Of a DNA stretch of 21,970 bases, positions 1-21,970 are shown in pieces. The notes beneath the pieces were generated by a model. The model was not told the origin of the DNA, did no database searches, and saw nothing but the letters and a program-made list of their open reading frames with translations. The DNA is from a virus. The position numbers and the translations under genes are program-made. The stretch is from the IMG/VR virus record IMGVR_UViG_3300010354_000776, positions 1 to 21,970 of that record; one strand, given 5' to 3'. How positions within the stretch are numbered: the stretch's first letter is position 1; every line of letters begins with the position of its first letter.

Positions 1-1
1 C

Positions 2-29
2 ATTATACCAAAAACTCACTGGCAGTCAA
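2..29 (-). promoter_or_regulatory. sigma-70 type promoter, minus strand, at window edge
   Basis: Read on the minus strand, TTGACT (24-29) and TATAAT (2-7) are separated by 16 bases. It would drive a gene lying to the left of the window. It matches the other minus-strand promoters of this region in box quality and spacing and follows the stop of the 22-aa peptide gene. Confidence 0.7.
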
Positions 30-64
30 TGGGCCATTCTCATCTTTTAGGATAAGGTGAAACA

Positions 65-133: not shown

Positions 134-333
134 TATTCTTTCGAGCCTCCTAAAAGTATACCAATAAAAAACAATCCAATAGTACCTATACAAAAGATAG
201 CAATAATAGCCTCACTAACTACCTTGCCGACTGTTTCAATATCTATTCCGGTTGATGCAGAGATGAACGCAATAATAGGATAGCAAACCAAGAACAAAAC
301 AAAGAAAAACCATATAACATTTGAGATTTTCAT
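133..333 (-). CDS. 66-aa protein with two membrane segments
   Basis: The start at 333 is chosen because AAGGAG lies just upstream and a consensus promoter (365-392) ends about 30 bases before it. The frame stays open further upstream, but only through the hairpin repeat. The product has two hydrophobic segments (about residues 5-27 and 41-62) separated by a short loop with Asp, Glu and Lys, and it ends GGSKE. Two short helices and small size are compatible with a holin-like or other phage membrane protein, but position among presumed early genes does not support lysis in particular. I do not recognise the family. It is followed with overlap by the 22-aa peptide gene. Confidence 0.75.
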   Translation of the reverse strand: MKISNVIWFFFVLFLVCYPIIAFISASTGIDIETVGKVVSEAIIAIFCIGTIGLFFIGILLGGSKE

Positions 334-364
334 CACTTCTCCTTCTCTTGCCTGTTGTTCTCTG

Positions 365-392
365 ATTATACCTAGTATCGGCACGGTGTCAA
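365..392 (-). promoter_or_regulatory. sigma-70 type promoter, minus strand
   Basis: Minus strand TTGACA (387-392), 16-base spacer containing GCCGATAC, then TATAAT (365-370). Both boxes are exact consensus. It drives the membrane peptide pair at 333-65 and sits directly after hairpin element A. Confidence 0.85.
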
Positions 393-420
393 GAGAAAAT
401 CCAGAAAAAATAAAAATTTT

Positions 421-503
421 ATTTGGCACGGCATTTGCTAGGCACACCCCCCGAATGGGGGATGGCGGCGGGCCCGCACCCCCCAAAGGAGGGGGTACGG
501 GTG
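421..503 (-). repeat. tandem C/G-run hairpin element, copy A (probable terminator)
   Basis: Two adjacent hairpins: CCCCCC(447-452)/GGGGG(457-461) with a GAAT loop on the plus strand, and ACCCCC(478-483)/GGGGGT(491-496). A GC-rich GGCGGGCCCGC linker joins them. The flank carries GGCACGGCATTTGCTAGGCA, related to the flanks of copies C and D. It lies between the stop of the 75-aa gene (510) and the next promoter (392), where a minus-strand terminator is expected; an A/T tract follows on the minus strand. Confidence 0.7.
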
Positions 504-509
504 TTACTA

Positions 510-737
510 TCACTGAGATAGAAACTTAACTACTTGCTTACGACTAACGGGCGTCCAATCCTTATGTAATCTCTTATTAAGTTTACTAGGACGCAGTGAG
601 CCATTGCTCGCAAGAGTGAGTTTATAACCTACAAGGTGGTGGTCTGTTACATGAGTATACTTAACAGCCTCAGCCTTGCAAGTCTTACGATTGAAACCGA
701 TACCATATGTTGGTTCATCAAACTTTACCATTTTCAT
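510..737 (-). CDS. 75-aa basic protein, unknown function
   Basis: Second gene of a two-gene unit, 9 bases after the acidic protein gene. AAAGGG lies only one base before the first ATG (737) but eight before a second in-frame ATG (731), so translation may begin at either; the difference is two residues. The product starts MKMVKFDEPTYGIGFNRK and has a basic C-terminal half rich in Lys and Arg (SLRPSKLNKRLHKDW). There are no membrane segments and no motif I recognise. A basic product encoded right behind a strongly acidic one is suggestive of a pair that could bind each other, but that is speculation. Hairpin element A follows the stop. Confidence 0.7.
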   Translation of the reverse strand: MKMVKFDEPTYGIGFNRKTCKAEAVKYTHVTDHHLVGYKLTLASNGSLRPSKLNKRLHKDWTPVSRKQVVKFLSQ

Positions 738-746
738 ACCCTTTAT

Positions 747-893
747 TTAGAAGTCACCATCGAACTGACCATGATCCCAATCGTCGCCACCGTGCAAGTC
801 TTGCCACTCGGTGTACTCGTCGGGTTGACCATCATCATCCCACTCATCGTATTCGTCGTGGTCGTAGTCGTCACAGTAGTCTTCGTCAAACAT
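747..893 (-). CDS. 48-aa extremely acidic protein (possible DNA mimic)
   Basis: ATG at 893 is preceded by AAGGAG and by a consensus promoter (919-946). Of the 48 residues, 22 are Asp or Glu and none is Lys or Arg; Trp and Tyr are frequent (DEWDDD, DEYTEWQD). This composition resembles small phage proteins that mimic the DNA phosphate backbone (the Ocr/Ugi/Gam style), but there is no sequence match I can claim to any of them. It is the first gene of a promoter-linked early unit, where anti-restriction or anti-nucleoid proteins usually sit. A metal- or calcium-binding role is an alternative. Coding potential is supported by promoter, ribosome site and tight spacing to the next gene. Confidence 0.7.
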   Translation of the reverse strand: MFDEDYCDDYDHDEYDEWDDDGQPDEYTEWQDLHGGDDWDHGQFDGDF

Positions 894-918
894 TTCGTTT
901 TCTCCTTGTGATGCTCTC

Positions 919-946
919 ATTATACAGGGTATCGGCAGCGTGTCAA
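919..946 (-). promoter_or_regulatory. sigma-70 type promoter, minus strand
   Basis: Minus strand TTGACA (941-946), 16-base spacer with TGCCGATAC, TATAAT (919-924). Exact consensus boxes. It drives the acidic protein gene (893-747) and the 75-aa gene. The spacer core is the same as in the promoter at 365-392. Confidence 0.85.
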
Positions 947-953
947 CCCCTTC

Positions 954-1124
954 TCAAATATTTTTTTCATTTTTTTCCATGACCACATCAAGCCAGATTT
1001 CCCCATCTTCCACAACATACCCATATTCATGAGTCGGAGTATAGACCCCAAGATAGACCCTATCCCCTTCGATCCCCTCAAACCCAAACCCAAACCCAAA
1101 CACCATGAAAAAAGCAGTGAACAT
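954..1124 (-). CDS. 56-aa protein with hydrophobic N-terminus
   Basis: Two in-frame starts are possible. ATG at 1124 has AAGGGG six bases upstream and lies about 30 bases from a -10-like box (1154-1159), the same distance seen in the neighbouring units, so it is preferred. ATG at 1148 would add eight residues, also has a GGAAAG, but would fall at about the transcription start. The product begins MFTAFFMVFGFGFGFEG, a hydrophobic stretch resembling a signal or anchor, then DRVYLGVYTP and a Tyr- and acid-rich tail. The FGFGFG run reflects four GGGTTT repeats in the DNA. No family is recognised. Confidence 0.55.
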   Translation of the reverse strand: MFTAFFMVFGFGFGFEGIEGDRVYLGVYTPTHEYGYVVEDGEIWLDVVMEKNEKNI

Positions 1125-1153
1125 TTGTATCCCCTTGACAAGTACCATTCTTT

Positions 1154-1182
1154 CCTATAGAGAGTATCGGCTGTTCTCTGCA
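1154..1182 (-). promoter_or_regulatory. degenerate promoter, minus strand
   Basis: By alignment to its neighbours through the GCCGATACTC core (1161-1171 on the plus strand as its complement), the -10 position reads TATAGG (1154-1159) and the -35 position TGCAGA (1177-1182). The boxes are poor. The shared core and the 30-base distance to the ATG at 1124 are the only reasons to list it. Confidence 0.35.
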
Positions 1183-1214
1183 CCACTCTTGAGAAAAATA
1201 AAAAGATTTTTGTC

Positions 1215-1270
1215 AACCCCCCTAATGGGGGATGCCGCGGGGCCGCCACCCCCACAATGGGGGGTGGACA
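1215..1270 (-). repeat. tandem C/G-run hairpin element, copy B (probable terminator)
   Basis: Plus-strand CCCCCC(1217-1222)TAAT GGGGG(1227-1231), then ATGCCGCGGGGCCGCC, then CACCCCC(1247-1253)ACAAT GGGGGGTG(1259-1266). Loops and linker match copies C and D. It follows the stop of the 90-aa gene (1291) in minus-strand order and is followed on that strand by a T-rich stretch (1195-1210). Confidence 0.7.
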
Positions 1271-1290
1271 GGTGTTCAGTGTACAGACGT

Positions 1291-1563
1291 TCACTCCTCG
1301 TCAAATGGTGAACGCTCGTTCAGTATGTTGTCTTCGTTGTTGTAGAACTCAACCAGTTTCGCATACGCTTCGCTTTTCATCTCCGCGATGTCTCGCGGTT
1401 TGGGTTGCTTCTTGGCTTGTCGCTTTGCGAGGTATCTTTCGTAGGCCGCATCCTGTTCAGGCGTATAGGTGAACGTAATGTCAGGGCCGCGAAAATCTTC
1501 AAGAGCATCGAAGAACTCTTCGTCGGTCAGAAAGTCATCGTCGGTGTAGTTGATCGTATCCAT
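1291..1563 (-). CDS. 90-aa acidic hypothetical protein
   Basis: Starts MDTINYTDDDFLTDEEFF. ATG at 1563 has AAGGAA ten bases upstream and a promoter (1593-1621) about 30 bases before it. The first 25 residues are strongly acidic, the middle (YERYLAKRQAKKQPKPRD) is basic and probably helical, and the end is acidic again (ERSPFDEE). No catalytic motif, cysteine cluster or membrane segment is present. I do not recognise the family. It is a monocistronic unit between its own promoter and hairpin element B, as expected for a small early phage protein. Confidence 0.75.
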   Translation of the reverse strand: MDTINYTDDDFLTDEEFFDALEDFRGPDITFTYTPEQDAAYERYLAKRQAKKQPKPRDIAEMKSEAYAKLVEFYNNEDNILNERSPFDEE

Positions 1564-1592
1564 GTCTCTGTTCCTTGGGTTGATGATGCTTG

Positions 1593-1621
1593 ATTTTACA
1601 AAACTGGTTTCGGGCTGTCAA
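1593..1621 (-). promoter_or_regulatory. sigma-70 type promoter, minus strand
   Basis: Minus strand TTGACA (1616-1621), 17-base spacer, TAAAAT (1593-1598). The TGA stop codon of the upstream 89-aa gene (1618-1620) lies inside the TTGACA box. It drives the 90-aa gene starting at 1563. Confidence 0.8.
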
Positions 1622-1887
1622 CTCCACTTAATCCGATTTGAGAGCAAGACTTCGATGAACTCCAACTCTCTCTTACGATGCAAGTTTGTGGTCTTTCTCT
1701 GTTCTTCCAAGCATCGGCTGTATTGAACGTGAACCGCTTCGATATCCATCTCCCAGACCATCTTTCGGAGAGGTTCTTTCCAATCGTACTTGGGCTTTGG
1801 GTATTGAGCGGCAATCCGCAGTTCAGCGGTCACATAACCATCACGGTCATCACGGGCGAAGTCACAGCAAGCAGTTGAGTTTCTCAT
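1618..1887 (-). CDS. 89-aa hypothetical protein
   Basis: ATG at 1887 is chosen because AAGGAAAG lies just upstream and a promoter (1922-1950) ends 35 bases before; an upstream in-frame ATG falls in the -10 box. The product starts MRNSTACCDFARDDRDGY, has the segment PKPKYDWKEPLRKMVWEM, and ends in a charged, probably helical region (RCLEEQRKTTNLHRKRELEF). Two adjacent cysteines near the N-terminus and one later do not form a clear zinc site. No family is recognised. It forms a monocistronic unit. Confidence 0.7.
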   Translation of the reverse strand: MRNSTACCDFARDDRDGYVTAELRIAAQYPKPKYDWKEPLRKMVWEMDIEAVHVQYSRCLEEQRKTTNLHRKRELEFIEVLLSNRIKWS

Positions 1888-1921
1888 TTTTTCTTTCCTT
1901 AGGTCTTTCTTACTTATCGAC

Positions 1922-1950
1922 ATTTTACAAACCAGACTTGAGCGTGTCAA
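1922..1950 (-). promoter_or_regulatory. sigma-70 type promoter, minus strand
   Basis: Minus strand TTGACA (1945-1950), 17-base spacer with GCTCAAGTCT, TAAAAT (1922-1927), immediately followed by GTCGATA. The promoter at 2557-2584 shares both GCTCAAGTCT and the post -10 GTCGATA, so these two form a second related subtype. Confidence 0.8.
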
Positions 1951-1985
1951 CAGGTGTACAAATGTTTTTTTGGATTTTTTCTGAG

Positions 1986-2090
1986 TAGCAAATCTCATGC
2001 CAAAACTTTTTCGGCACGCCGTTTGCTCTGGCAGCATACCCCCCTAATGGGGGATGCCGCGCCCGCCGCACCCCCACAATGGGGGGTGTT
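1986..2090 (-). repeat. tandem C/G-run hairpin element, copy C (probable terminator)
   Basis: It comprises an AGCAAA...TTTGCT stem (1987-2026) enclosing TGCC/GGCA, then CCCCCC TAAT GGGGG and CACCCCC ACAAT GGGGGGTG hairpins. Bases 2021-2090 are identical to 2644-2713 in copy D. On the minus strand it follows the stop of the 64-aa gene (2144) and precedes the promoter at 1950. Confidence 0.8.
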
Positions 2091-2143
2091 TCCCCTTGCG
2101 TGTGGCCTACATAGGCGGGTGGTTTAGGATGTACAGATGTACA

Positions 2144-2338
2144 CTAGTTGAACCACCGCTTTCGCAACTCGGTTGCACCTTCGGTGATAATGCACCGCAG
2201 TAGTGTACGGTGTGCAGTACTGATCGTTTGATCAGATAGCCTACGGCTTGCACCGTGCATGCGAGCGGTTATCTCCTCATCGCTCATGGTTTCGAGTACA
2301 GCCTGAAAGTATGGGCCATTGTTTTCGATGCTGAACAT
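2144..2338 (-). CDS. 64-aa hypothetical protein
   Basis: Second gene of a two-gene unit. AAGGAG, part of which is the TAA stop of the upstream gene, lies 8 bases before the ATG at 2338, so coupling is likely. The product begins MFSIENNGPYFQAVLETM and continues as a charged, mostly helical protein (SDEEITARMHGASRRLSD, TEGATELRKRWFN). There are no cysteines of note, no membrane segment and no motif I recognise. Hairpin element C follows. Confidence 0.7.
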   Translation of the reverse strand: MFSIENNGPYFQAVLETMSDEEITARMHGASRRLSDQTISTAHRTLLRCIITEGATELRKRWFN

Positions 2339-2349
2339 TTGTCTACTCC

Positions 2350-2520
2350 TTACAGTCGAACTGGCATGTAGTCGAGGATGACCTCACAATGGTCACCACA
2401 GCACGGGCACACTTCGTACTCGACATGAGTATCGTCGAGGAACTGATTGCAGCACCCACTAGTGGCGACCTGTACTTCACCGAAGAACTCTTCCACTTGG
2501 ATCTCATCGAAACTGTTCAT
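2350..2520 (-). CDS. 56-aa cysteine-pair (zinc-ribbon-like) small protein
   Basis: ATG at 2520 follows a clear AAGGAG; an in-frame ATG at 2550 would coincide with the expected transcription start, so the shorter form is preferred. The product has an acidic N-terminus (MNSFDEIQVEEFFGE), then GCC about residue 21-23 and CPCCGDHC about residues 38-45, spaced like a small zinc-binding fold. Many phages encode short proteins with a CCG...CPxCxxHC pattern of unknown role, and this looks like one of them. It heads the unit promoted from 2557-2584 and is coupled to the 64-aa gene. Confidence 0.75.
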   Translation of the reverse strand: MNSFDEIQVEEFFGEVQVATSGCCNQFLDDTHVEYEVCPCCGDHCEVILDYMPVRL

Positions 2521-2556
2521 TTCCTTACTCCTTGTTTCCTTACCATTCATATCGAC

Positions 2557-2584
2557 ATTATACAGCCTAGACTTGAGCCGTCAA
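2557..2584 (-). promoter_or_regulatory. sigma-70 type promoter, minus strand
   Basis: Minus strand TTGACG (2579-2584), 16-base spacer with GCTCAAGTCT, TATAAT (2557-2562), followed by GTCGATA. It drives the two-gene unit 2520-2144. Confidence 0.8.
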
Positions 2585-2608
2585 GAGAAAAAAGAAAAAA
2601 ATTTTTTG

Positions 2609-2740
2609 TAGCAAATCTCATGCCAAAAATAGTTTGGCACACCGTTTGCTCTGGCAGCATACCCCCCTAATGGGGGATGCCGCGCCCGCCGCACCCCCAC
2701 AATGGGGGGTGTTCCCCTCCCTCCCCCCCGCATAGGGGGT
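2609..2740 (-). repeat. tandem C/G-run hairpin element, copy D (probable terminator)
   Basis: Same organisation as copy C: AGCAAA...TTTGCT stem (2610-2650), then the two C-run/G-run hairpins; bases 2644-2713 equal 2021-2090. A third related hairpin, CCCCCCC GCATA GGGGG (about 2722-2739), is added. On the minus strand the AGCAAA/TTTGCT stem is followed by AAAAAATTTTTTTC, a terminator-like tract. Confidence 0.8.
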
Positions 2741-2758
2741 TGGGTTAGGTGTGACAGT

Positions 2759-2800
2759 GTACATGTGTGAGTGTGTGTGTGTGTGTGTGTGTACATGTGT
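2759..2800. repeat. (GT)11 microsatellite flanked by GTACATGTGT repeats
   Basis: Eleven uninterrupted GT units (2771-2792) lie between direct copies of GTACATGTGT (2759-2768 and 2791-2800). It sits just past the stop of the 36-aa membrane peptide in minus-strand order. Long dinucleotide runs are rare in phage DNA. Length variation by slippage is possible. Confidence 0.8.
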
Positions 2801-2803
2801 ACA

Positions 2804-2914
2804 CTACATGGTAGGTATGGGTGTGTAGCAGTAGAAGATACTGAACACAGTTACAGTGAGGAACAGTAGTATAGTAGTGAACTCAAGATCAGATTGGTCG
2901 AACCTTTTCATCAT
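2804..2914 (-). CDS. 36-aa membrane peptide
   Basis: The ATG at 2914 overlaps the stop of the 72-aa gene (ATGA), with GAGAGGG upstream inside that gene; a second ATG follows at once. The product has a charged start (MMKRFDQSDLEF) and one hydrophobic segment of about 21 residues (TTILLFLTVTVFSIFYC), ending in a short Pro-containing tail. It is a plausible single-pass membrane peptide. Coupling and ribosome site support it; no family is recognised. Confidence 0.55.
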   Translation of the reverse strand: MMKRFDQSDLEFTTILLFLTVTVFSIFYCYTPIPTM

Positions 2915-3129
2915 GCTACCCTCTCAAGCGTTTCGATATCGTTCTCATTATCGTAGGCGTTACGATAACCCTTGCCATTGAACAAGCGTACACCAAGCAA
3001 GTCTCCGCGAGAATCAATCCCTTCCTTGATACTCTCGACTTCTCCAATGTAAGGGTTGCCACTAGCGGATACCCATTGAACAACGTCACCACAAGAGAAC
3101 CGATCACCATGCTGAATCTTTTTCATCAT
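2911..3129 (-). CDS. 72-aa hypothetical protein, beta-rich
   Basis: ATG at 3129 (or 3126, one residue later) follows AAGGAA and the promoter at 3150-3177. The sequence HGDRFSCGDVVQWVSASG, with NPYIGEVESI and LLGVRLFNG, alternates hydrophobic residues and glycines, as in small SH3- or KOW-like beta barrels; that is only an impression of fold. It ends NDIETLERVA. The stop overlaps the start of the 36-aa membrane peptide. Confidence 0.75.
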   Translation of the reverse strand: MMKKIQHGDRFSCGDVVQWVSASGNPYIGEVESIKEGIDSRGDLLGVRLFNGKGYRNAYDNENDIETLERVA

Positions 3130-3149
3130 TTCCTTTTTTCCTTTTCCCT

Positions 3150-3177
3150 AGTATATCAGATTTTCTTGGCCGGTCAA
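3150..3177 (-). promoter_or_regulatory. sigma-70 type promoter, minus strand
   Basis: Minus strand TTGACC (3172-3177), 16-base spacer, TATACT (3150-3155). It drives the 72-aa and 36-aa genes. Confidence 0.75.
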
Positions 3178-3193
3178 TACTGAACAAATGTTT

Positions 3194-3343
3194 TTACAGG
3201 ATGTTTCCATCTCCGCGAATGCGGTACATGATTCCGCCGATGCTGTAAAGGCAGATACCCTCGCCCATATGCTGAACAAATGAAGCGGAATATCCGTGAT
3301 GGGCAACTAGGCGGCGAAGCGTATTTTGAACTTGAATCGTCAT
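3194..3343 (-). CDS. 49-aa hypothetical protein
   Basis: ATG at 3343 lies 22 bases from the -10 box of the promoter at 3365-3393; the ribosome site GGGAAAG is modest. The product begins MTIQVQNTLRRLVAHHGYS and continues through GEGICLYSIGGIMYRIRG to DGNIL. A helix followed by beta strands is likely. No family is recognised. Regular spacing between promoter, start, stop and the next promoter supports it as a real gene. Confidence 0.6.
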   Translation of the reverse strand: MTIQVQNTLRRLVAHHGYSASFVQHMGEGICLYSIGGIMYRIRGDGNIL

Positions 3344-3364
3344 TTTCTTTCCCTCGTTTTCTCT

Positions 3365-3393
3365 ATTCTAGAGTATCGGCTTTTTCTTGTCAA
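3365..3393 (-). promoter_or_regulatory. sigma-70 type promoter, minus strand
   Basis: Minus strand TTGACA (3388-3393), 17-base spacer with GCCGATACTC, TAGAAT (3365-3370). It drives the 49-aa gene and carries the shared spacer core. Confidence 0.8.
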
Positions 3394-3402
3394 CCCCTTG
3401 AA

Positions 3403-3597
3403 TCAGATTTCGTCAGAAACGATTTCCTCATTCTTGTCGTTGAAGATTGTGAAACTGACAGCCCAATCGCTGCCTTCCCAATCTCCACGAACAATGTTTT
3501 CTAGCATCGCTGCATCGGAGTGAGTAGTGTAGTCAATCACTTCTCCGAATACGTCATAGATGCGAGCGGTGAACAGGGTTGCAGTTGTGAAGTTCAT
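3403..3597 (-). CDS. 64-aa hypothetical protein
   Basis: ATG at 3597 follows AAAAGGAAAAAG and the promoter at 3637-3665. The product begins MNFTTATLFTARIYDVFGEV and ends FNDKNEEIVSDEI. It is acidic overall and looks mixed alpha/beta (THSDAAMLENIVRGDWEG between two strand-like parts). There are no cysteines and no membrane segment. No family is recognised. It is the first gene of the minus-strand train; its stop lies ten bases before the next -35 box. Confidence 0.7.
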   Translation of the reverse strand: MNFTTATLFTARIYDVFGEVIDYTTHSDAAMLENIVRGDWEGSDWAVSFTIFNDKNEEIVSDEI

Positions 3598-3636
3598 TTT
3601 CTTTTTCCTTTTCTTTCTCGTTTTCCTTATGCCATC

Positions 3637-3665
3637 ATTCTACAGAGTAGATCGGCTCATGTCTA
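3637..3665 (-). promoter_or_regulatory. sigma-70 type promoter, minus strand
   Basis: Minus strand TAGACA (3660-3665), 17-base spacer containing GAGCCGAT, TAGAAT (3637-3642). It drives the 64-aa gene and is the rightmost promoter of the minus-strand array. Confidence 0.7.
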
Positions 3666-3788
3666 GCAAAATCTTTAGAGATTTTCACGATTTGGTCATA
3701 AGTCGTTGGTATCATTAGACTTACGTCATTTTGGATTTTCAGATTTTCTTAGTGGACACTTTGGCGAATGAGAATCGACAGATTTTCC

Positions 3789-3873
3789 CTAGGGTGGGGG
3801 CTAAGGTATACCCCCGTACACTACCTTAAGGTTTTATCTAGGGTGGGGGGGTAAGGTATACCCCCATATACTA
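3789..3873. repeat. duplicated G-run/C-run repeat
   Basis: CTAGGGTGGGGG followed by TAAGGTATACCCCC and an ACTA end occurs at 3789-3823 and again at 3838-3873, with small differences (one CTAA versus GTAA, CCCCCGTACACTA versus CCCCCATATACTA). In each copy the G run can pair with the C run around the GGTATACC palindrome. The 14-base gap contains part of ACCTTAAGGT. Confidence 0.8.
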
Positions 3874-3959
3874 AACATTTAAAAAAAGAGATATACCCCC
3901 CATTTGCGGGAGGCTCATTTATATGCCGTATATTATATATTTTTTTATGATTTTTCTGA

Positions 3960-4004
3960 GGGATGCCGAAAAACCGGAGGACATCTAAGAATAGTAGGCA
4001 CCCC
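3960..4004. terminator. hairpin downstream of the nuclease gene
   Basis: GGGATGCC (3960-3967) pairs with GGCACCCC (3997-4004) with one G-T, leaving a 29-base loop. It lies 20 bases past the stop of the minus-strand nuclease gene, with A/T tracts on both sides. It may be a terminator for that gene or a structured RNA remnant; the loop is longer than usual for a terminator. Confidence 0.35.
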
Positions 4005-4023: not shown

Positions 4024-5475
4024 CTAAACCATCGCCATTGGCTGTATAGATTCGTGAAATCGGCTGAATCTTTCTTGTTCACTAGGGTTGCGGTACAGAC
4101 TAAGATACAATCTTGTATTAAAGATTTGCACAGGATCATAGAGTTTCTTAAAACGCTCTTTTAAAATATCAAAAATCTCCTGATCCGAAAATCTAAGATA
4201 AGTTGCTTTTACAAATGTGGCAACTCCACTACTCACAGCCAAAGGACACTCAACACGCTCGGCATTTCTCATAATTTCATCATAAAGAGTCTTTTGTTTT
4301 TTAACTTTAACTCTTGACACAGATTTTGGTTTGTTTCTAGATTTTGGTTTGTTTCTATGAGCAATAGAAAAACGACGATTCTTATTTTTATCTAAAACTT
4401 CAGGATACTTTTCTCTCAATCCTAATTTCTTCTCCCATTCAAAAACAGAATAACTTACTTTAGTTCCTCGATATTCTTGATTTTGCTTCCACTTATCCTT
4501 AAAGAAATCACTTAGCTCTCCTATATCTGCACCAAATTCTAACCACTTCTTCTCAAACAGTTCAGGAAAATCTCCTCTCTTATCTAATCCGTTTTGACTA
4601 TGACTTCCTTCCATCAGATGAAGAGGATTATAGCATTTGCTATTATTACACAAATGCCTAACCAGCTTTGGGTAAGTTCCATAATGTTCCCAAAAAGCTA
4701 CTCTATGTTTCATAAGAGTTTTTTCCTCTCCATTTACTACTATATTTAAAGATCCATATCCTCTTTGACCATTAACATAATTTGCTTCTTTGCAAGGTGT
4801 TTCATCATAAAAATTTTCTGTGCTCAATGTATAATTATCATTATAACTTTTAGCGCCTACTGCTTTCTGCAAAAATGGTAAAATTGTTTCTAGTTCTGGG
4901 TGTTTATTTTTATTATAATAAGAACTAGTGTTCCATTTTAATAAATATTTATTTTCAACATCAAGAAGATCTTTTTCATTAATTTCTCCCTCTATAAGAT
5001 AGCATTTAAAAGTATACTTTCTTGAGTTATAGTCTTTTTGCAACTCCCTATTAAAGTGCTTTTTTCTTTTTAAATCGTGCATATGAGATCTTAATCTGCT
5101 TATAACATTAATGCTAGACCCTACATAAATTTTTGGGTTTTGAAATATTGCAGAATCTTTTGAGTTGGTAGTATCAATAAGACTAATTTTTCTTCTAACT
5201 TCTATAAGATAAATTCCACTAATTTTATTTTTGCTTTTAAGACTAAGAAGTTGCATTTGCTCAATTTCGCTTGATGTGATTCTCAAAGAAACATTTCTTT
5301 GTTGAAGCAGTTTTCTTAGTGCGCTCTTGCTAATATTATATTTTACCATAATTTCTGGTTTTGTCATCCCATTAGCATAATCCTGAACTACTCCCCGTTC
5401 CTCTACACCATTAAAAATTCTTCTTGTTTTTCTCTTTTTCTTATCAAGACAATTTTTTGGTCTTCCGTTTTTCAT
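4024..5475 (-). CDS. homing endonuclease with GIY-YIG and HNH (His-Me finger) domains
   Basis: The start at 5475 has AAGGAGG at ideal spacing. The 483-aa product has a basic N-terminus with a helix-turn-helix-like segment (about 38-65). A GIY-YIG domain follows (about 85-190): GIY 87-89, YVG 117-119, the catalytic Arg in SRLRSHMHDL, Glu 174 in LLDVENKYL and an Asn after YY near 188, all matching the I-TevI pattern. A second nuclease-like region (about 250-297) has KHRVAFWEHYG, HLCNN, NPLHL and SHSQN, as in zinc-loop His-Me homing enzymes. The C-terminus (about 310-483) is unassigned. Such enzymes cut related genomes at a specific site to spread their gene. The gene is markedly AT-rich and opposite in strand to the late operon, consistent with insertion. 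No interrupted host gene or intron is visible around it, so it looks free-standing. Confidence 0.88.
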   Translation of the reverse strand: MKNGRPKNCLDKKKRKTRRIFNGVEERGVVQDYANGMTKPEIMVKYNISKSALRKLLQQRNVSLRITSSEIEQMQLLSLKSKNKISGIYLIEVRRKISLIDTTNSKDSAIFQNPKIYVGSSINVISRLRSHMHDLKRKKHFNRELQKDYNSRKYTFKCYLIEGEINEKDLLDVENKYLLKWNTSSYYNKNKHPELETILPFLQKAVGAKSYNDNYTLSTENFYDETPCKEANYVNGQRGYGSLNIVVNGEEKTLMKHRVAFWEHYGTYPKLVRHLCNNSKCYNPLHLMEGSHSQNGLDKRGDFPELFEKKWLEFGADIGELSDFFKDKWKQNQEYRGTKVSYSVFEWEKKLGLREKYPEVLDKNKNRRFSIAHRNKPKSRNKPKSVSRVKVKKQKTLYDEIMRNAERVECPLAVSSGVATFVKATYLRFSDQEIFDILKERFKKLYDPVQIFNTRLYLSLYRNPSEQERFSRFHESIQPMAMV

Positions 5476-14642: not shown

Positions 14643-14669
14643 CTTTTGAAAAAAACAGGAGACTATAAA

Positions 14670-15677
14670 ATGGCAAAGAAATTTGAACCTACCCCAGAGC
14701 TCACAGATCTACTTATTAGATCTGGTTCAGCTCGTAGAGAAGAAGCCTTAGCAGCTACCAATGAGTTTGCTAAAGCTCTTGAACTTCCACTTCGTCAAGG
14801 TCTTCTTAGTGGAGACATTCTTGGCAACATCTTCGAAGCTATTCAATTAGCTCCGGGTGCTGCTCCAGAATTCCCACTAGACTTCCTTTCCCCAGGCACT
14901 GAAAAGGACTTTGTTGCTTATACAATTCCTAATCATGGCTATATTCCACAGCGTCATGTTGAGAGCGATTATGTCATGGTTCCAACCTATGACATTGCTA
15001 ACGCTATCGACTACTTACTAAAGTATGCTCGTGATGCTCGTTGGGATATTGTTGGTCGTGCTATGGAAGTTCTTGAGAACGGTTTCGTCAAGAAGATGAA
15101 TGACGACGGATGGCATACTCTTCTAGCTGCTGGTGTTGATCGTAACATCGTAGTTTATGATGCTGATGCTGGCGCTGGTCAGTTCACAAAGAGATTAGTT
15201 TCTCTCATGAAAACTGTTATGCGTCGTAACGGAGGCGGTAATAGCACAAGCACAAATCGTGCCCAGCTTACCGACCTTTATGTTTCACCAGAAGCGATTG
15301 AAGATATTCGCAACTGGGGTCTTGATCAAGTTGACGAAATTACTCGTCGTGAAATTTACGTTGCTAATGACGGCAGCGGATCACTCACAAGAGTATTTGG
15401 CGTTAATCTTCATGACCTTGATGAACTTGGCGAAGGCCAAGAGTATCAACTCTACTACCAGAACGTTCTTGGTGGTGGACTTCCAGCAGGCGACGTTGAG
15501 ATTGTAGTTGGCCTTGACCAGAGCAAGCGTGATGCTTTCATCATGCCAGTTCGCGAGCAAGTTCAAATCTTCGAAGATGAATCACTACATCGTCAGAAGA
15601 GAGCTGGCTACTATGGTTGGGCAGAGCAAGGCTTTGCTGTTCTTGATAACCGCAGAGTTATTCTTGGCTCACTATAA
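14670..15677 (+). CDS. major capsid protein
   Basis: The start at 14670 is chosen over a TTG eight codons upstream because ACAGGAG lies at the right spacing. The 335-aa product (starting MAKKFEPTPELTDLL) has an N-terminal helix, an E-loop-like segment near 75-100 (KDFVAYTIPNHGYIPQRHVE), a long helix (YLLKYARDARWDIVGRAMEV) and beta-rich parts with Gly (GSGSLTRVFGVNLHDLDE). It ends with a beta strand, consistent with an HK97-type fold. The position after portal, protease and decoration genes, and a strong terminator behind it, fit a highly expressed capsid gene. Codon use is richer in G and C at third positions than neighbouring genes, as often seen in highly expressed phage genes. Confidence 0.9.
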   Translation: MAKKFEPTPELTDLLIRSGSARREEALAATNEFAKALELPLRQGLLSGDILGNIFEAIQLAPGAAPEFPLDFLSPGTEKDFVAYTIPNHGYIPQRHVESDYVMVPTYDIANAIDYLLKYARDARWDIVGRAMEVLENGFVKKMNDDGWHTLLAAGVDRNIVVYDADAGAGQFTKRLVSLMKTVMRRNGGGNSTSTNRAQLTDLYVSPEAIEDIRNWGLDQVDEITRREIYVANDGSGSLTRVFGVNLHDLDELGEGQEYQLYYQNVLGGGLPAGDVEIVVGLDQSKRDAFIMPVREQVQIFEDESLHRQKRAGYYGWAEQGFAVLDNRRVILGSL

Positions 15678-15733: not shown

Positions 15734-15794
15734 CTTTATAGTGTATTATAATGTTGAAGTCCTTATTTTAGAGAGAAAAATAGGAGAGAGAGAA

Positions 15795-16517
15795 ATGCCA
15801 GCAATTAATGTATTTACAGTTAGAAAAGATACCCAAGCTAATTGGGCAGCAGCTCCTGCTGAATTAGGCAGAGCTATATTATATGAAGGCGAATTCGGAT
15901 ATGAAACAGACACTTTCGCTTTAAAGATAGGCGATGGTGTTAGGTCTTATTCTAGTTTACCTTATTTTATTGCACCTGGAGGTGCCGGTGGTGGAACTGT
16001 CACAGCTTCTGGACTTATTGATGGATCTGGAATAGCTAATTATTTAAGTCTATTTGCTGATACAGATACGGTTGTTAATAGCGTTGTATACCAAAACGGA
16101 GCCAATATCGGAGTAGGAACAACTAATCCTGCTTATAGACTAACAGTAGACGGCTCTTTTTCTGCTTCAACCAAAAGCTTTGATATTCCTCATCCTTCTG
16201 ATCCAAATAAGAGACTAGTTTATGGAAGCTTAGAATCTCCTTATCATGGAATTAGAATGACTGGCAGAGACGTAATCAGAAATGGATTATGTGTTATTAA
16301 ACTTCCTAGCTATGTAAAAGACTTAGTGAGACAAGAAGGCTGCTCTGTAAATTTGACGAATATTAAACATTCTAAAATTCTTTTTGTTGACACGATTGAC
16401 ATTCCTAATAATACTATTACTATAAGAATAGCAGAACCCGTAGCAAGAGACTTAGAGTTCTTTTGGGATTTCACTGCTATCAGAAAGGATATTGCGGACT
16501 TAGTAGTAGAACCTTAG
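15795..16517 (+). CDS. tail fibre-like virion protein
   Basis: The start at 15795 follows AGGAGAGAG; an upstream GTG in frame is not favoured. The 240-aa product has an N-terminal module common in phage fibre and appendage proteins (RKDTQANWAAAPAELGRAIL, EFGYETDTFALKIGDG, SYSSLPY). Next come NIGVGTTNPAYRLTVDGSF and KSFDIPHPSDPNKRLVYGSL, a segment usually found near the tips or chaperone-linked ends of fibres, and a C-terminal part (about 165-240) of beta strands. It probably assembles as a trimer on the particle. The exact appendage is unknown. It lies directly after the capsid terminator and before the sugar-related genes. Confidence 0.7.
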   Translation: MPAINVFTVRKDTQANWAAAPAELGRAILYEGEFGYETDTFALKIGDGVRSYSSLPYFIAPGGAGGGTVTASGLIDGSGIANYLSLFADTDTVVNSVVYQNGANIGVGTTNPAYRLTVDGSFSASTKSFDIPHPSDPNKRLVYGSLESPYHGIRMTGRDVIRNGLCVIKLPSYVKDLVRQEGCSVNLTNIKHSKILFVDTIDIPNNTITIRIAEPVARDLEFFWDFTAIRKDIADLVVEP

Positions 16518-16525
16518 GAAAATTT

Positions 16526-17503
16526 ATGAGAATTTTATGTCAGGATATAATTGATCAGGGTGGAGATGTTATACCTTTGCTTTTGCCTGCAGGAGAATTA
16601 AAAGCTCCTGCAAGCGCTAATGTGAGTGTATTATCAATAAATAATAAACTATTGGTCAATATTAGAAATCTTAACTATGTTTTATATCATGCTGAGAACT
16701 TAAAAAATTCTCATGCTTTTGGTCCTTTAGCTTATCTTCACCCAGAAATAGATCAGACTCTTACTACATATAATTATATCTGTGAGCTTGACGACAATCT
16801 TAATATAGTAGCTTATTCTTTAGTAGATACAACAGCAAGCGATGTTCCTCCTTTATGGGAATTTGTTGGACTAGAAGATGTTAGGTTAGTACATTGGAAT
16901 AATGAGCTCTGGCAGTGCGGAGTTAGAAGAGACACAACACCAAACGGTGTTGGAAGAATGGAACTGGTTAAGTTAGGAGTAGAAGGAAATAAGATTAAAG
17001 AGCTATCTAGAGACAGAATGCCTGCTCCTCCTCCTAATGATAGTTATTGTGAAAAGAACTGGATGCCTATTATAGACATGCCTTATCATTTTGTAAAGTG
17101 GACAAATCCAACAGAAATAGTTAAGTACGATATAAATAATAAGACTACAACAACAGTTAAGATTAGTCCACAAGCTAATATCCAAACAAGTGATCTAAGA
17201 GGAGGCTCACAAGTAATCTCCTATAAGAACCACTTTATCTGCATTACTCATGAAGTAGATCTTTATTGGAGCGAAGCAGGAAGAAAAGATGCTGATTATT
17301 GGCATAGAGTTATAGTATGGGATAAAGATTTCAATATTGTACACGCTTCTGAGCCTTTTACTTTTATGAATGGCAAGATTGAATTTTGTGTTGGATTAAC
17401 TATACATAACAACCAATTTATTGCTACTTTCGGATATCAGGATAATGCTGCTTATTTAGCTAAAATACCAACTCAAATAATGGATGGACTTACTGGACTA
17501 TGA
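16526..17503 (+). CDS. GH130-like beta-propeller protein (glycoside-related)
   Basis: ATG at 16526 follows TTAGGAAA; the frame extends upstream into the fibre gene but without support. The 325-aa product shows the ordered motifs of five-bladed propellers related to mannoside phosphorylases and their relatives: FVGLEDVRLV (113-122), CEKNWMP (175-181), LRGGSQV (224-230), ICITHEV (238-244), YWHRVIV (258-264), IEFCVGLT (285-292) and FGYQDNAA (302-309). In this group Glu and Asp in the central cavity act on glycans. Proteins of this type are often encoded beside glycosyltransferases and methyltransferases, as here. Whether it is enzymatic or a lectin-like structural part is not known. The stop overlaps the next gene (ATGA). 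Confidence 0.72.
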   Translation: MRILCQDIIDQGGDVIPLLLPAGELKAPASANVSVLSINNKLLVNIRNLNYVLYHAENLKNSHAFGPLAYLHPEIDQTLTTYNYICELDDNLNIVAYSLVDTTASDVPPLWEFVGLEDVRLVHWNNELWQCGVRRDTTPNGVGRMELVKLGVEGNKIKELSRDRMPAPPPNDSYCEKNWMPIIDMPYHFVKWTNPTEIVKYDINNKTTTTVKISPQANIQTSDLRGGSQVISYKNHFICITHEVDLYWSEAGRKDADYWHRVIVWDKDFNIVHASEPFTFMNGKIEFCVGLTIHNNQFIATFGYQDNAAYLAKIPTQIMDGLTGL

Positions 17504-19392
17504 TAAATAAACAACTTTTACACGACTATATTTTAGATCCCAAAAACCCAGTTAAATGTTATCGTTTAGGATATGCATATTATTCTGTAGAACATTATGG
17601 AGAAGCTGTTAGTTTCTTTTTAAGAGCAGCAGAAAATTCTGAAGGAGATCTAAGATACAACTCTATGCTTCATGTTGCTTTTTGCTATAGAGCTTTAGGA
17701 GGCAGAAACTATACTCTTAATAGCATTTATAAGAGCATGATCGCAAGGTTTCCAGCAAAGCCAGAGGCTTATTTTCATTTAGCAAAATTATGCGAAAGAG
17801 AAAATGCTAATGTTGATGGGTACATGTGGGTTCATTTGGCCCTAGAGAATTCTAATAATGCAGGAACAGAATATCATGATCTTGAGTTTGATTTTGTAGA
17901 AGTATTATTCTTAAAGGCTTATTTTGCGTGGCTATTAGACAAACCGGCAGAATCCAGAAGAACATATGAATACATTCTTAAAAACTATCTTCATGAGTTA
18001 GATGAGGGAAGAACTCAATTTCTTAGAGGTCAACTTCTAAAGTTTGGCATGGCTAAAGAATCTGAGACTATACAAGCTTATAATAATAACAATAAGCATC
18101 AGTGGATTTATGAGTTTGATAACATTAATGAAATACAGAATAATCATTCGCAAGCTCTGCAAGATATGTTTGTGCTTTACTGTCATAACGGTAAAAAGAA
18201 CGGAACTTATCTTGAGGTCGGGGCAGCGTTTCCTTATTACACGAGCAACACTGCATTACTAGAGCAGTTTGGCTGGAAGGGTGTTGGTCTTGAGCTTGAT
18301 CCAGAAATGGTAAAAATTTACAATCAGCACAGAAGAAACAAAAGCTTACAACAAGATGCTCTTACAGCAGATTATGATAAGCTATTAACAGAATATTGTG
18401 GTGTTACAGATGTAGATTATCTTCAAGTAGATATTAAAACATCTGAAGAAACTTATAAAGCTTTACAAAGAATTCCTTTTGATAAGTATAGGTTTGCTGT
18501 TATAACCTATGAACATGACGATTATGTAGATGATACTCAAAGCTATAAACAAAAATCAAGAGACTTTCTTTTTTCTAAAGGATATCTTTTAGCTGTTCCA
18601 GATGTTGCTCCTATTGATGGGTATAGTTTTGAGGACTGGTGGATTCATCCAGATCTTATTGATATTACTAGAGTTTGGTCTATGAATAGATTAGCTAAAA
18701 TAAATTGGGGAAATACCACATTAGAACAAAGAGACAGAATTTATAATAATGTTCAATTAGAAAATTTATACGAATACTGGAGACCTGTTAAGGATGGAGA
18801 TGTTGTGGTAGACATTGGAGCTAATGTTGGGGCTTTTGGAGTTAGAGCACTAAGAAAACAACTCAAAGCTCTTTATGAAGTAGAAGCATCATCAGACCTC
18901 ATGGATACCTGCGTAAAGAACACTTTAAAATATAATAGTAGAAATAGCCCTATAAGTTATTTAAACCATTCTATCTGCAAACCAGGAAGTAATGTAAACT
19001 CTTTTACAGGACCAGAAGAATTTACAATCGTAACATTTAAGCAATTTCTACAAAATAATAAAATTTCTTACATAGATTTCCTAAAGATTAATGCAGAAGG
19101 TGCTGAGTACGATATCTTTACAAGTGAAAACATGTACTTTCTAAAAAACAACACTATGTTCATCGCTGCAGAATTTCATCTAGGATATGAAGATGGAAAG
19201 CAAAAATGGAAAAACTTTAGAGATAAGTACCTTCCACACTTTCCAAATAGAAAAATTAGATCGTTTAAGAATCAAAACATTGTTCCAGGATATATTATTG
19301 ATCTAGAACCATACTTAAATGATAATCAATTTGTAGATACTTACGAACATCCTTTTATGGTCTATATAAATAATGATAGAGCCTACCTCTAA
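17500..19392 (+). CDS. TPR protein with two FkbM-like methyltransferase domains
   Basis: A 630-aa fusion. Residues 10-185 are tetratricopeptide-like helical repeats (YRLGYAYYSVEHYGEAVSFF, AYFHLAKLCER). Residues about 215-375 form a SAM-binding domain (GTYLEVGAAFPYYTSN, GWKGVGLELDP, VDYLQVDIKT, VITYEHDDY) of the FkbM type. Residues about 420-630 form a second one (VVVDIGANVGAFGVRA, YIDFLKINAEGAEYDIF, IAAEFHLGYE). FkbM enzymes O-methylate sugars and other small substrates; tandem copies with a TPR scaffold are unusual. Positioned between propeller and glycosyltransferase genes, it probably modifies a glycan bound to virion or host surface. The second domain has the fuller set of motifs; the first may be less active. 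It overlaps both neighbours. Confidence 0.85.
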   Translation: MINKQLLHDYILDPKNPVKCYRLGYAYYSVEHYGEAVSFFLRAAENSEGDLRYNSMLHVAFCYRALGGRNYTLNSIYKSMIARFPAKPEAYFHLAKLCERENANVDGYMWVHLALENSNNAGTEYHDLEFDFVEVLFLKAYFAWLLDKPAESRRTYEYILKNYLHELDEGRTQFLRGQLLKFGMAKESETIQAYNNNNKHQWIYEFDNINEIQNNHSQALQDMFVLYCHNGKKNGTYLEVGAAFPYYTSNTALLEQFGWKGVGLELDPEMVKIYNQHRRNKSLQQDALTADYDKLLTEYCGVTDVDYLQVDIKTSEETYKALQRIPFDKYRFAVITYEHDDYVDDTQSYKQKSRDFLFSKGYLLAVPDVAPIDGYSFEDWWIHPDLIDITRVWSMNRLAKINWGNTTLEQRDRIYNNVQLENLYEYWRPVKDGDVVVDIGANVGAFGVRALRKQLKALYEVEASSDLMDTCVKNTLKYNSRNSPISYLNHSICKPGSNVNSFTGPEEFTIVTFKQFLQNNKISYIDFLKINAEGAEYDIFTSENMYFLKNNTMFIAAEFHLGYEDGKQKWKNFRDKYLPHFPNRKIRSFKNQNIVPGYIIDLEPYLNDNQFVDTYEHPFMVYINNDRAYL

Positions 19393-20128
19393 AATAAAAA
19401 ACTTACCACCTATCTTTATAGTAACTTTAGAAGAGTCTATAAAAAGAAGAATAAACTTATACAAACAGCTTAAAAAGTACCATATAGAGAATTTTAAATT
19501 TTGTATGTATAAAAGGTATGCTGAGTATGGTTGGAAATTTACTGGAAAACATCTTGATAATATAAGTCATAATAGCTATGGTCCAACAACATCTCATATA
19601 CTAACAAATAAATATTGGACAGAAAATACAGACCATGATTATGTTTTAGTTATAGAGGACGATATAGATTTATCTACTATTGATTTATGGAACTTTAAAT
19701 GGGACGATTTGTTTAAGTCTCTGCCTTTAGATTGGGACTGTGTTCAGCTATCAATAATGAGAGAAAATCCCAATGACTTAGAGTTTAGAATAAAAAGAAG
19801 ATATATGCCAGACTTTGGATGTCAAATTTATTTGATAAAAAGACATTACGCAGAAAGAATGGCTAAACTTTATTATAGACCAGATGGGTTTCATTTAGAA
19901 ATTCCAACTTGCAGGGTGCTTCAAGCAGAAGATAAAGTTGAATGGCTAGATTTATTCCCTATAGTAGAAAATTTAGTATTCGAAGGAATAGGTAAGGTCT
20001 ATAACTTACCTCTATTTTGTGAGGATTTGGACAATACTAACACAACAGGAATAGGAATAAGTATAGAAGAATATCGCTTTCCTTGTCGAGAATTATTACT
20101 AAAAAAAATATCCGAGTATAAATTTTAG
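19373..20128 (+). CDS. GT25-like glycosyltransferase
   Basis: A 251-aa protein. IFIVTLEESIKRR (14-26) is the start seen in family 25 glycosyltransferases of lipooligosaccharide and collagen-glucosyl type; GPTTSHILTNKYW (70-82) and VLVIEDDIDLS (91-101) give the acceptor-side and metal-binding EDD motifs; DWDCVQLSIM and GCQIYLIKRHYAERM follow in the correct order. It transfers a sugar onto a glycan or protein; substrate unknown. It starts 20 bases inside the preceding gene with no clear ribosome site, so coupling is expected. It closes the three-gene carbohydrate cluster. Confidence 0.82.
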   Translation: MIEPTSKIKNLPPIFIVTLEESIKRRINLYKQLKKYHIENFKFCMYKRYAEYGWKFTGKHLDNISHNSYGPTTSHILTNKYWTENTDHDYVLVIEDDIDLSTIDLWNFKWDDLFKSLPLDWDCVQLSIMRENPNDLEFRIKRRYMPDFGCQIYLIKRHYAERMAKLYYRPDGFHLEIPTCRVLQAEDKVEWLDLFPIVENLVFEGIGKVYNLPLFCEDLDNTNTTGIGISIEEYRFPCRELLLKKISEYKF

Positions 20129-20196: not shown

Positions 20197-21435
20197 ATGG
20201 CAGATATTCTAATAACCCCAGGTGATGGCACGCTGGTATTCTATAGCGGTGCTGGGGGCGTAGGCGAATTAGGTAGATTTACAGCAACACCAAGCGGAGT
20301 ATCTTATACTTCCACTGTTGGTTCATTTACCGTTGATTCTCTAGTTGTAAATGGGTCAATGAGTGTAGCTCAACTAGACACACTTGTTAATATTCTTCCT
20401 ACAGATTATGTAATTGTTGAACAAAGCGGAGTAACAAAAAGAACTCTGGTTTCAGACTTTTTAGCAGACGCTGGAACCATTCAAGAAGTAGTAGCAAATG
20501 AAGGAGTTTACATAAGTGGCAGCTATTTAGGAACTGTTTATAACACTACTATCGGAGATAATGTTACTAATGTTGCTGTTGGAGGTTTGAGTGCCGGTAC
20601 AGCAGCTTCAGTTCTAAAAACAAAAAGCATTGTAGAAATTCTTGACGATATTTTATTTCCAACTCTTGAAGCCACCATTGCCAGCAATCGTAGCGTATCA
20701 TTAGATGTTTCTGGTGGTGGCGGAACATTAGAAGTTGGCAGTTCAGTAAGCAGAACTCTAACTGCAACTTTCAGCCAAGGTTCTATTACCAATGGAGACG
20801 GATCAGCTGGTCCATCTCTTGTTGGAGCTGCTACACAGTATACATTTACTGGTACTGGTATCTCTTCTACAGCTCAAGCTGGTAATACCTTAAGTCTAGG
20901 TAGTGCTACTGTTGTTAATGGTTCTAATAACTGGGCTGTAACTGCAGATTACGGAGCAGGTTCCGGAGCATACTATGACAACAAGAGCGTTGCCGGTTCA
21001 AACTTAGACGCATCTAGAGCTTCTGGAAGTGCTTCAGACTCATCAAGCAATCCAACAATCACAGGATTACATCCTTATTTCTATGGCTTATCAAATAGTG
21101 AGCCTACTGCTGGAGACATTCAAAGTGCTATTGCGGCTGGTGCAGGAACAAAGGTTGTATCATCTTCAACTGGTACTGTTAGTGTTCAGTTCAATGCTAC
21201 AACAGCAAATTATCTATGGTTCGCTGTTCCTGCAACAAGCACAGACAAGACTGTATGGTATGTTAATGCTTTAAATAATGGTAGTATTGGAGGAGGATCC
21301 AATCTGTTTGGTAGCCCAACTACTTTAGCTGTCGATAGCCCAGAATCTTACTGGTCAAGTGTTAACTATGATATTTATATCACTAACTATGCTACAACTA
21401 CCGGTTCTGACACAATGCAATTAAGGAATTCATAA
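20197..21435 (+). CDS. beta-rich virion structural protein
   Basis: AGGAG lies nine bases before the ATG at 20197. The 412-aa product is Gly-, Ser-, Thr- and Val-rich with few charges. It begins [18 protein letters not shown], has a [12 protein letters not shown] part like fibre adaptor segments, a [20 protein letters not shown] element (about 145-165) and long repeats of beta strand from there to the end. This pattern recurs in large structural or fibre proteins of environmental phages. No catalytic motif is seen. It follows a 68-base gap after the glycosyltransferase gene and precedes the collagen-like fibre gene; it may form part of the same appendage. Confidence 0.65.
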
Positions 21436-21437
21436 AT

Positions 21438-21970
21438 ATGGCTATAAATCTTAATGACAATCTAAATATACTAGCTCCAAAGAGCGTAGATTCAAGATTT
21501 GGTCCTTACGCGAGTACAGCAGCTGCTATTGCGGCATTGGGTGCTTCTGTTAGATACCAAGGCTTGACAGTAGCTATTACTGGAGTTAATGGTGTTCAAG
21601 AGTATTGGTTTGCTTCTGGTATTGCTGATGGAGATCTTGTTACTAAACTCGTTGAGGGAGGCCAAGGTAATCAAGGTGTTCAGGGGCTACAAGGCATTCA
21701 GGGACTTCAAGGAACCCAAGGAGTTCAAGGAACTCAAGGTACGCAAGGCACTCAAGGCGTTCAAGGTACGCAAGGTGTTCAAGGTACTCAAGGCGTTCAA
21801 GGAGTTCAAGGTGCTCAAGGGTTAGGAGCCCAAGGTACTCAAGGCGCTCAAGGCGTTCAAGGAACTCAGGGTACTCAAGGAGTTCAAGGTACTCAAGGTA
21901 CACAAGGAGTCCAAGGTGTTCAAGGAGCTCAAGGAGCTCAGGGCAGTCAAGGTCTTCAAGGAACTCAAGG
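21438..21970 (+). CDS. collagen-like tail fibre protein (partial, runs off window)
   Basis: ATG at 21438 follows AAGGA and stands two bases after the previous stop. The frame stays open to the window end (177 codons seen). Residues 1-73 form a fibre-type head domain ([45 protein letters not shown]). From residue 74 it is Gly-X-Gln repeat with X mostly Val, Thr, Ala or Leu. There is one break in register at residues 128-130 (G-L-G). Collagen-like phage proteins form trimeric rods; the distal receptor-binding part lies outside the window. Confidence 0.85.
21657..21970 (+). repeat. 9-bp collagen-type coding repeat
   Basis: Repeats of GGN NNN CAA/CAG encode Gly-X-Gln triplets, continuing past the window edge. 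Third-base variation is limited (GGT/GGA/GGC, CAA preferred), so copies are close to one another in DNA and prone to slippage. The array is interrupted once, at 21819-21827. Confidence 0.9.

What the first reader, a model, noticed from the sequence alone, without database searches (positions are those of the whole stretch)
16526..20128. Three-gene carbohydrate cluster inside the virion gene block
A GH130-like propeller, a TPR plus double FkbM-like methyltransferase and a GT25-like glycosyltransferase overlap one another and lie between fibre-type genes on the late strand. Late expression beside structural genes suggests glycosylation and O-methylation of a virion protein, perhaps the fibre or the collagen-like rod, or late remodelling of host surface glycan to stop re-adsorption. 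GT25 enzymes also glycosylate collagen hydroxylysine in animals, which makes the nearby collagen-like gene a tempting, unproven substrate.
Basis: partly seen in the sequence, partly recalled or inferred. Interest (0 to 1): 0.68.

Follow-up and report, generated by a model that had tools for sequence, protein, structure and literature searches.

The report
Phage glycan-building cassette beside collagen-like fibres
An uncultured aquatic phage carries three overlapping sugar- and methyl-transferring enzyme genes among its tail-fibre genes, and their two-gene core is a widespread phage cassette that repeatedly travels with collagen-like fibre genes, so it probably decorates the phage's own fibres with a methylated glycan.

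Summary
P1 (16526-17503) is a five-bladed propeller of the GH130/GT108 fold. P2 (17500-19392) is TPR plus two FkbM-type domains. P3 (19373-20128) is a GT25-like GT-A fold. They overlap and lie between fibre genes.

Relatives change the picture. P1 followed by a TPR protein is a conserved pair in 70 of 74 evaluable phage loci, sometimes fused. The TPR gene is absent from 74 of 74 same-lineage loci lacking P1. The TPR proteins carry interchangeable modules (FkbM, GT2, GT17, GT7C, GT25, radical SAM). P1 was found on only five small MAG contigs among about 85,000 prokaryote genomes; giant viruses have close structural relatives.

The cassette co-occurs with long collagen-like fibre genes: 10/10 large P1 contigs against 0/8 P1-negative relatives, within 4.3 kb in 9 of 10. 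In one relative, collagen gene, P1 and P2 form one block, absent or replaced in sister genomes.

The animal-collagen analogy fails on substrate: the nearby GXQ repeats contain no lysine. Thr/Ser O-glycosylation remains possible.

Best reading: a virion-fibre glycosylation cassette. The substrate is inferred, and host-surface remodelling remains the main rival. Interest 0.62; new variant of a known kind.

The parts
15741..16517 (+). Upstream tail-fibre-type gene with N-terminal Mtd_N domain (the likely start is an internal ATG near 15795)
   Evidence: Pfam PF18454 E 7e-7; several PHROG tail-fibre profiles; homologues (FIB1) recur after the capsid gene in the lineage
16526..17503 (+). P1: GH130/GT108-fold five-bladed beta-propeller, predicted mannoside phosphorylase/mannosyltransferase
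   Evidence: AF2 pLDDT 92; Foldseek PDB top hits beta-1,2-mannobiose phosphorylase 7fir, Teth514_1788, Leishmania MPT-2, E about 1e-8, TM about 0.6; ED(118)xR invariant in 65/65 homologues; 29/65 homologues hit Pfam GH130 at E<=1
17500..19392 (+). P2: TPR domain, FkbM-like domain 1 (about 207-395), FkbM methyltransferase domain 2 (438-563)
   Evidence: Pfam/NCBIfam FkbM 3e-15 and 2e-9; TPR; TPR + FkbM-1 core (about 415 aa) follows P1 in relatives
19373..20128 (+). P3: GT25-like glycosyltransferase, GT-A-like fold with invariant E95-D96-D97 motif
   Evidence: phrog_2835 3e-35; AF2 pLDDT 93; Foldseek top mimivirus R655, COLGALT1 GT25 domain, beta-1,4-galactosyltransferase; EDD invariant in 25/25
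20197..21435 (+). 412-aa ORF, probable virion/fibre protein, no family hit; seen only in the closest relatives
   Evidence: L005, L006, L092 carry it at the same place
21438..21968 (+). Collagen-like fibre gene (GTQ/GVQ triplets), open at the window end; candidate substrate
   Evidence: 34 triplets in two runs, 97% Gln in Y position, no Lys, no Pro; in a relative (L092) the corresponding open frame is 951 codons
14646..15677 (+). Conserved capsid-region gene used here as the lineage anchor (called MCP by position; identity inferred)
   Evidence: 80 IMG/VR relatives at 79-97% identity; no match in 50,697 phage records

Best explanation
The three genes are the local version of a phage glycan-assembly cassette that modifies a fibre protein of the virion. 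Core: P1, a GH130/GT108-fold propeller that most likely forms beta-mannosidic bonds (a phosphorylase run in reverse, or a transferase), and P2, whose TPR solenoid docks the acceptor protein or partner enzymes and positions the FkbM-type O-methyltransferase domains. Accessory: P3, a GT25-type transferase that adds a further hexose, and a second FkbM domain. The product would be a short O-methylated glycan on the collagen-like or neighbouring fibre made from the same late gene block, possibly on Thr/Ser of the GXQ triplets. Shown: folds and families, conserved active-site motifs, the P1-TPR pairing, module swapping, and co-inheritance with collagen-like fibre genes. Inferred: catalytic activity, linkage, acceptor and late timing.
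For: P1 fold and conserved ED118xR. The equivalent Asp is essential in GH130: D142N of BT3780 is inactive, and it corresponds to Asp131/Asp104 of the phosphorylases (PMC4599007). The invariant K177 lies 59 residues after it, close to K199 of BT3780 at +57, the beta-1,2-mannoside specificity Lys. A TPR gene follows P1 within 6 kb, or is fused to it, in 70 of 74 evaluable distinct loci, and is absent from 74/74 same-lineage loci lacking P1. The TPR ORFs carry FkbM, GT2, GT17, GT7C, GT25 and radical SAM modules in relatives, a glycan-building set. Collagen-like ORF in the 2 kb upstream of P1 in 33% of loci, against 2% per 2 kb in P1-less lineage loci. Large collagen gene in 10/10 big P1 contigs against 0/8 P1-negative ones, Fisher p 2e-5; P1 within 0.5-4.3 kb of it in 9/10, combined p 3e-4. 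In L098 collagen gene, P1 and P2 are back to back, at a site that is empty in L117/L147 and holds other ORFs in L122. P1 found on only 5 small MAG contigs in the genome-contig scan. Giant-virus relatives at TM 0.65-0.80, some annotated as fucosyltransferase, pyruvyltransferase or LicD.
Against: No substrate, donor or product is shown. More than half of P1 loci show no collagen run in the few kilobases fetched, and 4 of 21 large P1 contigs have none, though many are fragments. Only 3 of 80 collagen-bearing viral loci met without regard to P1 carry it, so most phage collagen does not need it. In S-SCSM2R no collagen gene is annotated next to P1. Fibre genes and their neighbours cluster in any phage, which inflates proximity. 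The negative controls come from one lineage. GXQ composition is shared by P1-less members of the lineage, so it is not a signature of the cassette.
Confidence: 0.5

Rival explanations
1. The cassette remodels a host surface glycan (LPS or capsule) late in infection, so that newly released phage is not lost on debris or the cell is closed to other phages.
For: GT25 and FkbM families are common in LPS and capsule loci (general knowledge); this role has been argued for glycosyltransferases near fibre genes of pelagimyophages (PMC7029224); in S-SCSM2R the pair is not beside an annotated collagen gene.
Against: No nucleotide-sugar or lipid-carrier genes were identified beside P1 in the window; the cassette tracks the presence of collagen-like fibre genes; a TPR-enzyme fusion suggests a protein-directed enzyme (inference).
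Confidence: 0.25
2. P1 is a non-catalytic carbohydrate-binding or folding factor for the fibre, and P2/P3 act elsewhere; the cassette is a fibre-assembly or chaperone set.
For: Close gene coupling to fibre genes; P1 is only about 14% identical to known enzymes; EDVR/EDAR replaces EDPR.
Against: Dozens of residues are invariant, including the catalytic Asp and several Arg/Lys/His and Trp, which fits an active site better than a scaffold; the partner is repeatedly fused to sugar transferases.
Confidence: 0.12
3. GT25 glycosylates hydroxylysine of the collagen-like rod as in animals and mimivirus.
For: The closest solved folds to P3 include mimivirus R655 and human COLGALT1; mimivirus has collagen lysyl glycosylation (PMC9546862).
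Against: No Lys in the GXX repeats of the window or closest relatives, and almost none in other P1 loci; no lysyl hydroxylase identified in the window; TM-score only about 0.5; GT25 is optional in the cassette.
Confidence: 0.04
4. Chance neighbourhood of unrelated moron genes in a hypervariable fibre region.
For: Fibre regions of aquatic phages collect glycosyltransferases (PMC7029224).
Against: 70/74 pairing, three fusions, 0/74 TPR without P1, block insertion.
Confidence: 0.04

Closest known systems
GH130 / GT108 mannoside phosphorylases and mannosyltransferases (Teth514_1788, 7fir, Leishmania MPT-2)
   Same: Five-bladed propeller fold, EDxR motif with the catalytic Asp, downstream Lys at similar spacing
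   Different: About 14% identity, no Pfam gathering-level hit, GVRRD and EKNWMP motifs of its own, mostly viral distribution, almost always with a TPR partner
Mycobacteriophage virion glycosylation (Freeman et al. 2023, as cited in PMC12619734)
   Same: Glycans sit on phage virion proteins
   Different: There on capsid and tail-tube proteins, and to my knowledge without this propeller/TPR-FkbM cassette; here the fibre is the inferred target
Mimivirus collagen-modifying enzymes (L230, R699, R655)
   Same: Virus encodes collagen-like proteins plus glycosyltransferases; R655 is the best fold match of P3
   Different: They act, or are thought to act, on (hydroxy)lysine; the phage repeats here have no Lys
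BclA exosporium glycoprotein of Bacillus (PMC6222408)
   Same: Collagen-like fibre carrying an O-methylated oligosaccharide; a precedent for glycan on GXX repeats (Thr linkage from general knowledge)
   Different: Bacterial spore system with different enzymes; GPT rather than GTQ triplets
Giant-virus propeller proteins (Pithovirus LCPAC, Solivirus, Satyrvirus, Indivirus)
   Same: TM 0.65-0.80 to P1, some in large proteins annotated as sugar transferases
   Different: Uncharacterised; eukaryotic hosts; a TPR-FkbM partner was not looked for there

Membership tests
GH130/GT108 clan (P1) | Five-bladed beta-propeller fold | tested here: met
   AF2 + Foldseek, best hits nearly all GH130/GT108
GH130/GT108 clan (P1) | Catalytic Asp in ED-x-R motif | tested here: met
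   Invariant E117, D118 and R120 in 65/65 homologues; aligned to the GH130 EDPR motif
GH130 Pfam PF04041 (P1) | Sequence score above curated cut-off | tested here: not met
   Window protein has no hit; best homologue E 8.5e-6; members scanned singly 13-18 bits vs cut-off 26. Filed as same fold/clan, not as a GH130 family member
GH130/GT108 clan (P1) | Activity: phosphorolysis or mannosyl transfer; phosphate-binding residues | tested here: inconclusive
   Invariant basic residues (R134, R135, R144, R225, H242, K254) but no structure superposition was possible; activity not testable here
GT25 (P3) | GT-A-like fold related to GT25 structures | tested here: met
   Foldseek R655, COLGALT1, TM about 0.5
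GT25 (P3) | EDD metal/donor motif | tested here: met
   Invariant in 25/25
GT25 (P3) | Pfam PF01755 gathering score | tested here: not met
   18.2 bits vs 24
FkbM methyltransferase (P2 C-terminal) | PF05050 / TIGR01444 above cut-off with SAM motif VDIGANVG | tested here: met
   57.1 bits vs 22.7; 38.1 vs 37.7
FkbM methyltransferase (P2 first domain) | Same profile above cut-off on its own | tested here: inconclusive
   Second stretch reported only at E<=1; conserved core LEIGxxxP...DYLQLD in relatives
Collagen lysyl glycosylation system | Lys in GXX repeats as acceptor | tested here: not met
   0/34 and 0/313 triplets
Virion protein glycosylation system | Glycan on a virion protein | not testable with these tools
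   needs mass spectrometry of particles

The most novel reading that the evidence does not exclude
A dedicated glycosylation system for collagen-like fibres, largely restricted to viruses: a mannosyl-transferring propeller and a TPR-methyltransferase scaffold with interchangeable transferase modules that O-glycosylate Thr/Ser of lysine-free GXQ repeats, spread among uncultured aquatic phages, with related propellers in giant viruses.
Probability: 0.27. Interest if true: 0.82.

Novelty: new variant of a known kind. Interest (0 to 1): 0.62.

Why it matters
Phage fibres decide host range, and collagen-like fibre genes are common in aquatic phages, yet modification of such fibres appears to be unstudied. 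A constant two-gene core with swappable transferases would let a phage change the glycan coat of its adhesin by module exchange. It would also link phage fibre biology to glycan-coated giant viruses, whose genomes encode structurally similar propellers.

Tried and rejected
(1) GT25 acting on hydroxylysine: rejected for the repeats, because they hold no Lys. (2) High Thr as a specific mark of P1-linked collagen: Thr per triplet is higher than in other collagen-bearing viral loci (median 0.42 vs 0.25, p 0.006), but pooled counts do not show it consistently and lineage effects were not removed, so it is weak. (3) GXQ, Lys-poor composition as a cassette signature: rejected, since same-lineage phages without P1 share it. 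(4) Sequence-only proof of GH130 for the window protein: phmmer, hmmsearch and hhalign give nothing significant over full length; only fold and homologues show it. (5) P3 search of IMG/VR with peptide patterns found nothing; P3 relatives came through P1 loci instead. (6) Looking for isolates of the same phage lineage: no match of the capsid-region gene in phage records. (7) psbA as host clue: above cut-off in three P1 records only, so cyanobacterial hosts for some; unknown for the window.

Full report
What is there. The window is a complete 21,970-bp IMG/VR fragment. On the + strand it runs terminase, portal-position gene, two further head-region genes, the conserved capsid-region gene, a Mtd_N fibre gene, P1, P2, P3, a 412-aa ORF and a collagen-like ORF. 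P1 begins 9 bp after the fibre stop; P1/P2 and P2/P3 overlap by 4 and 20 bp. This arrangement suggests a co-translated run. Late timing is inferred from the neighbours only.

P1. The window protein has no family hit alone. Sixty-five aligned sequences gave a model of pLDDT 92 whose best solved matches are GH130/GT108: beta-1,2-mannobiose phosphorylase 7fir, Teth514_1788, Leishmania MPT-2 and others, E about 1e-8, TM about 0.6, 14% identity. Twenty-nine of 65 homologues touch Pfam GH130 at E<=1. The ED118xR motif is invariant. In GH130 the equivalent Asp is required for activity (PMC4599007). K177, 59 residues on, is near the position (+57) of the beta-1,2-mannoside-specific Lys of BT3780; this last correspondence is by spacing only.

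P2 and P3. P2 is TPR, an FkbM-like domain and a canonical FkbM domain. P3 is modelled at pLDDT 93 with a GT-A-like fold nearest to mimivirus R655 and human COLGALT1, with an invariant EDD.

The real unit. In 78 distinct P1 loci (redundancy removed), a TPR gene of the P2 type follows P1 adjacent, within 6 kb or fused (three fusions) in 70 of the 74 loci with enough sequence. The TPR profile hits none of 74 same-lineage loci lacking P1. The core P2 is about 415 aa (TPR + first FkbM); the window version has an added C-terminal FkbM. In relatives the TPR ORF is fused to GT2, GT17, GT7C, GT25, other methyltransferase and radical SAM/SPASM domains, and P3-type GT25 is often inside that ORF. So GT25 is a module and the propeller-TPR pair is the constant. 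A scan of 84,980 prokaryote genomes found P1 only on five small MAG contigs, which may be phage. Among named phages it occurs in two Synechococcus phages and one Actinomycetia phage. In BFVD the closest models belong to an uncultured phage and to pithoviruses and other giant viruses, several annotated as sugar transferases.

Collagen association. Collagen runs occur in the 2 kb upstream of P1 in 33% of loci and at 2% per 2 kb in lineage loci without P1. Whole large contigs: 10/10 P1-positive have a collagen cluster over 600 bp, and P1 is within 0.5-4.3 kb of it in 9 of 10; 0/8 P1-negative same-lineage contigs have one (two have a single 12-triplet run). Placement against random positions gives combined p 3e-4; related contigs and fibre clustering make this optimistic. 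In L098 collagen gene, P1 and P2 stand back to back. The same site is empty in L117 and L147 and holds two other ORFs in L122, with the flanking genes conserved. In the window the collagen gene lies about 4 kb downstream.

Substrate. The repeats near P1 are GXQ type, nearly uncharged and nearly Lys-free, which rules out hydroxylysine in the window's repeats. Thr and Ser are plentiful, so O-linkage as in BclA is possible but untested.

Mechanism. Committed view: P1 makes a beta-mannosidic (or similar) bond, P3 adds a hexose, FkbM domains methylate hydroxyls, and TPR recruits the fibre substrate. Activity and acceptor are inferred. The main rival is host-surface remodelling.

Known or new. No paper found describes the cassette, but the library is open-access only. 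Virus-encoded virion glycosylation is a known kind; this is a new variant with a distinct enzyme set and an inferred fibre target.

Noticed in passing
window 4024-5475 (-): A 483-aa ORF combines helix-turn-helix, GIY-YIG and HNH_3 signatures: a composite homing-endonuclease-like protein.
   Followed up: no
window 1-4000: Higher G+C (0.42-0.50) than the rest and only short ORFs, many of them in series on the - strand.
   Followed up: no
window 14646-15677: The capsid-region gene has hundreds of IMG/VR relatives at about 80% identity but no match in 50,697 phage records: a common, uncultured aquatic phage lineage.
   Followed up: partly
L080:8917-11787: A P2-type protein carries a radical SAM + SPASM pair in addition to FkbM, hinting at a peptide-modifying variant of the cassette.
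   Followed up: no
L008-L107 and the window collagen ORF: Collagen-like repeats of these phages are G-X-Gln with almost no Pro, Lys or charge, unlike other viral collagen runs; whether they form a triple helix is open.
   Followed up: partly
BFVD A0A481Z9G3, A0A3G5AFP7, A0A3G5AG18 (hits of the P1 model, window 16526-17503): Propellers close to P1 in pithoviruses, and within proteins annotated as fucosyltransferase (Solivirus) or pyruvyl transferase (Satyrvirus).
   Followed up: no
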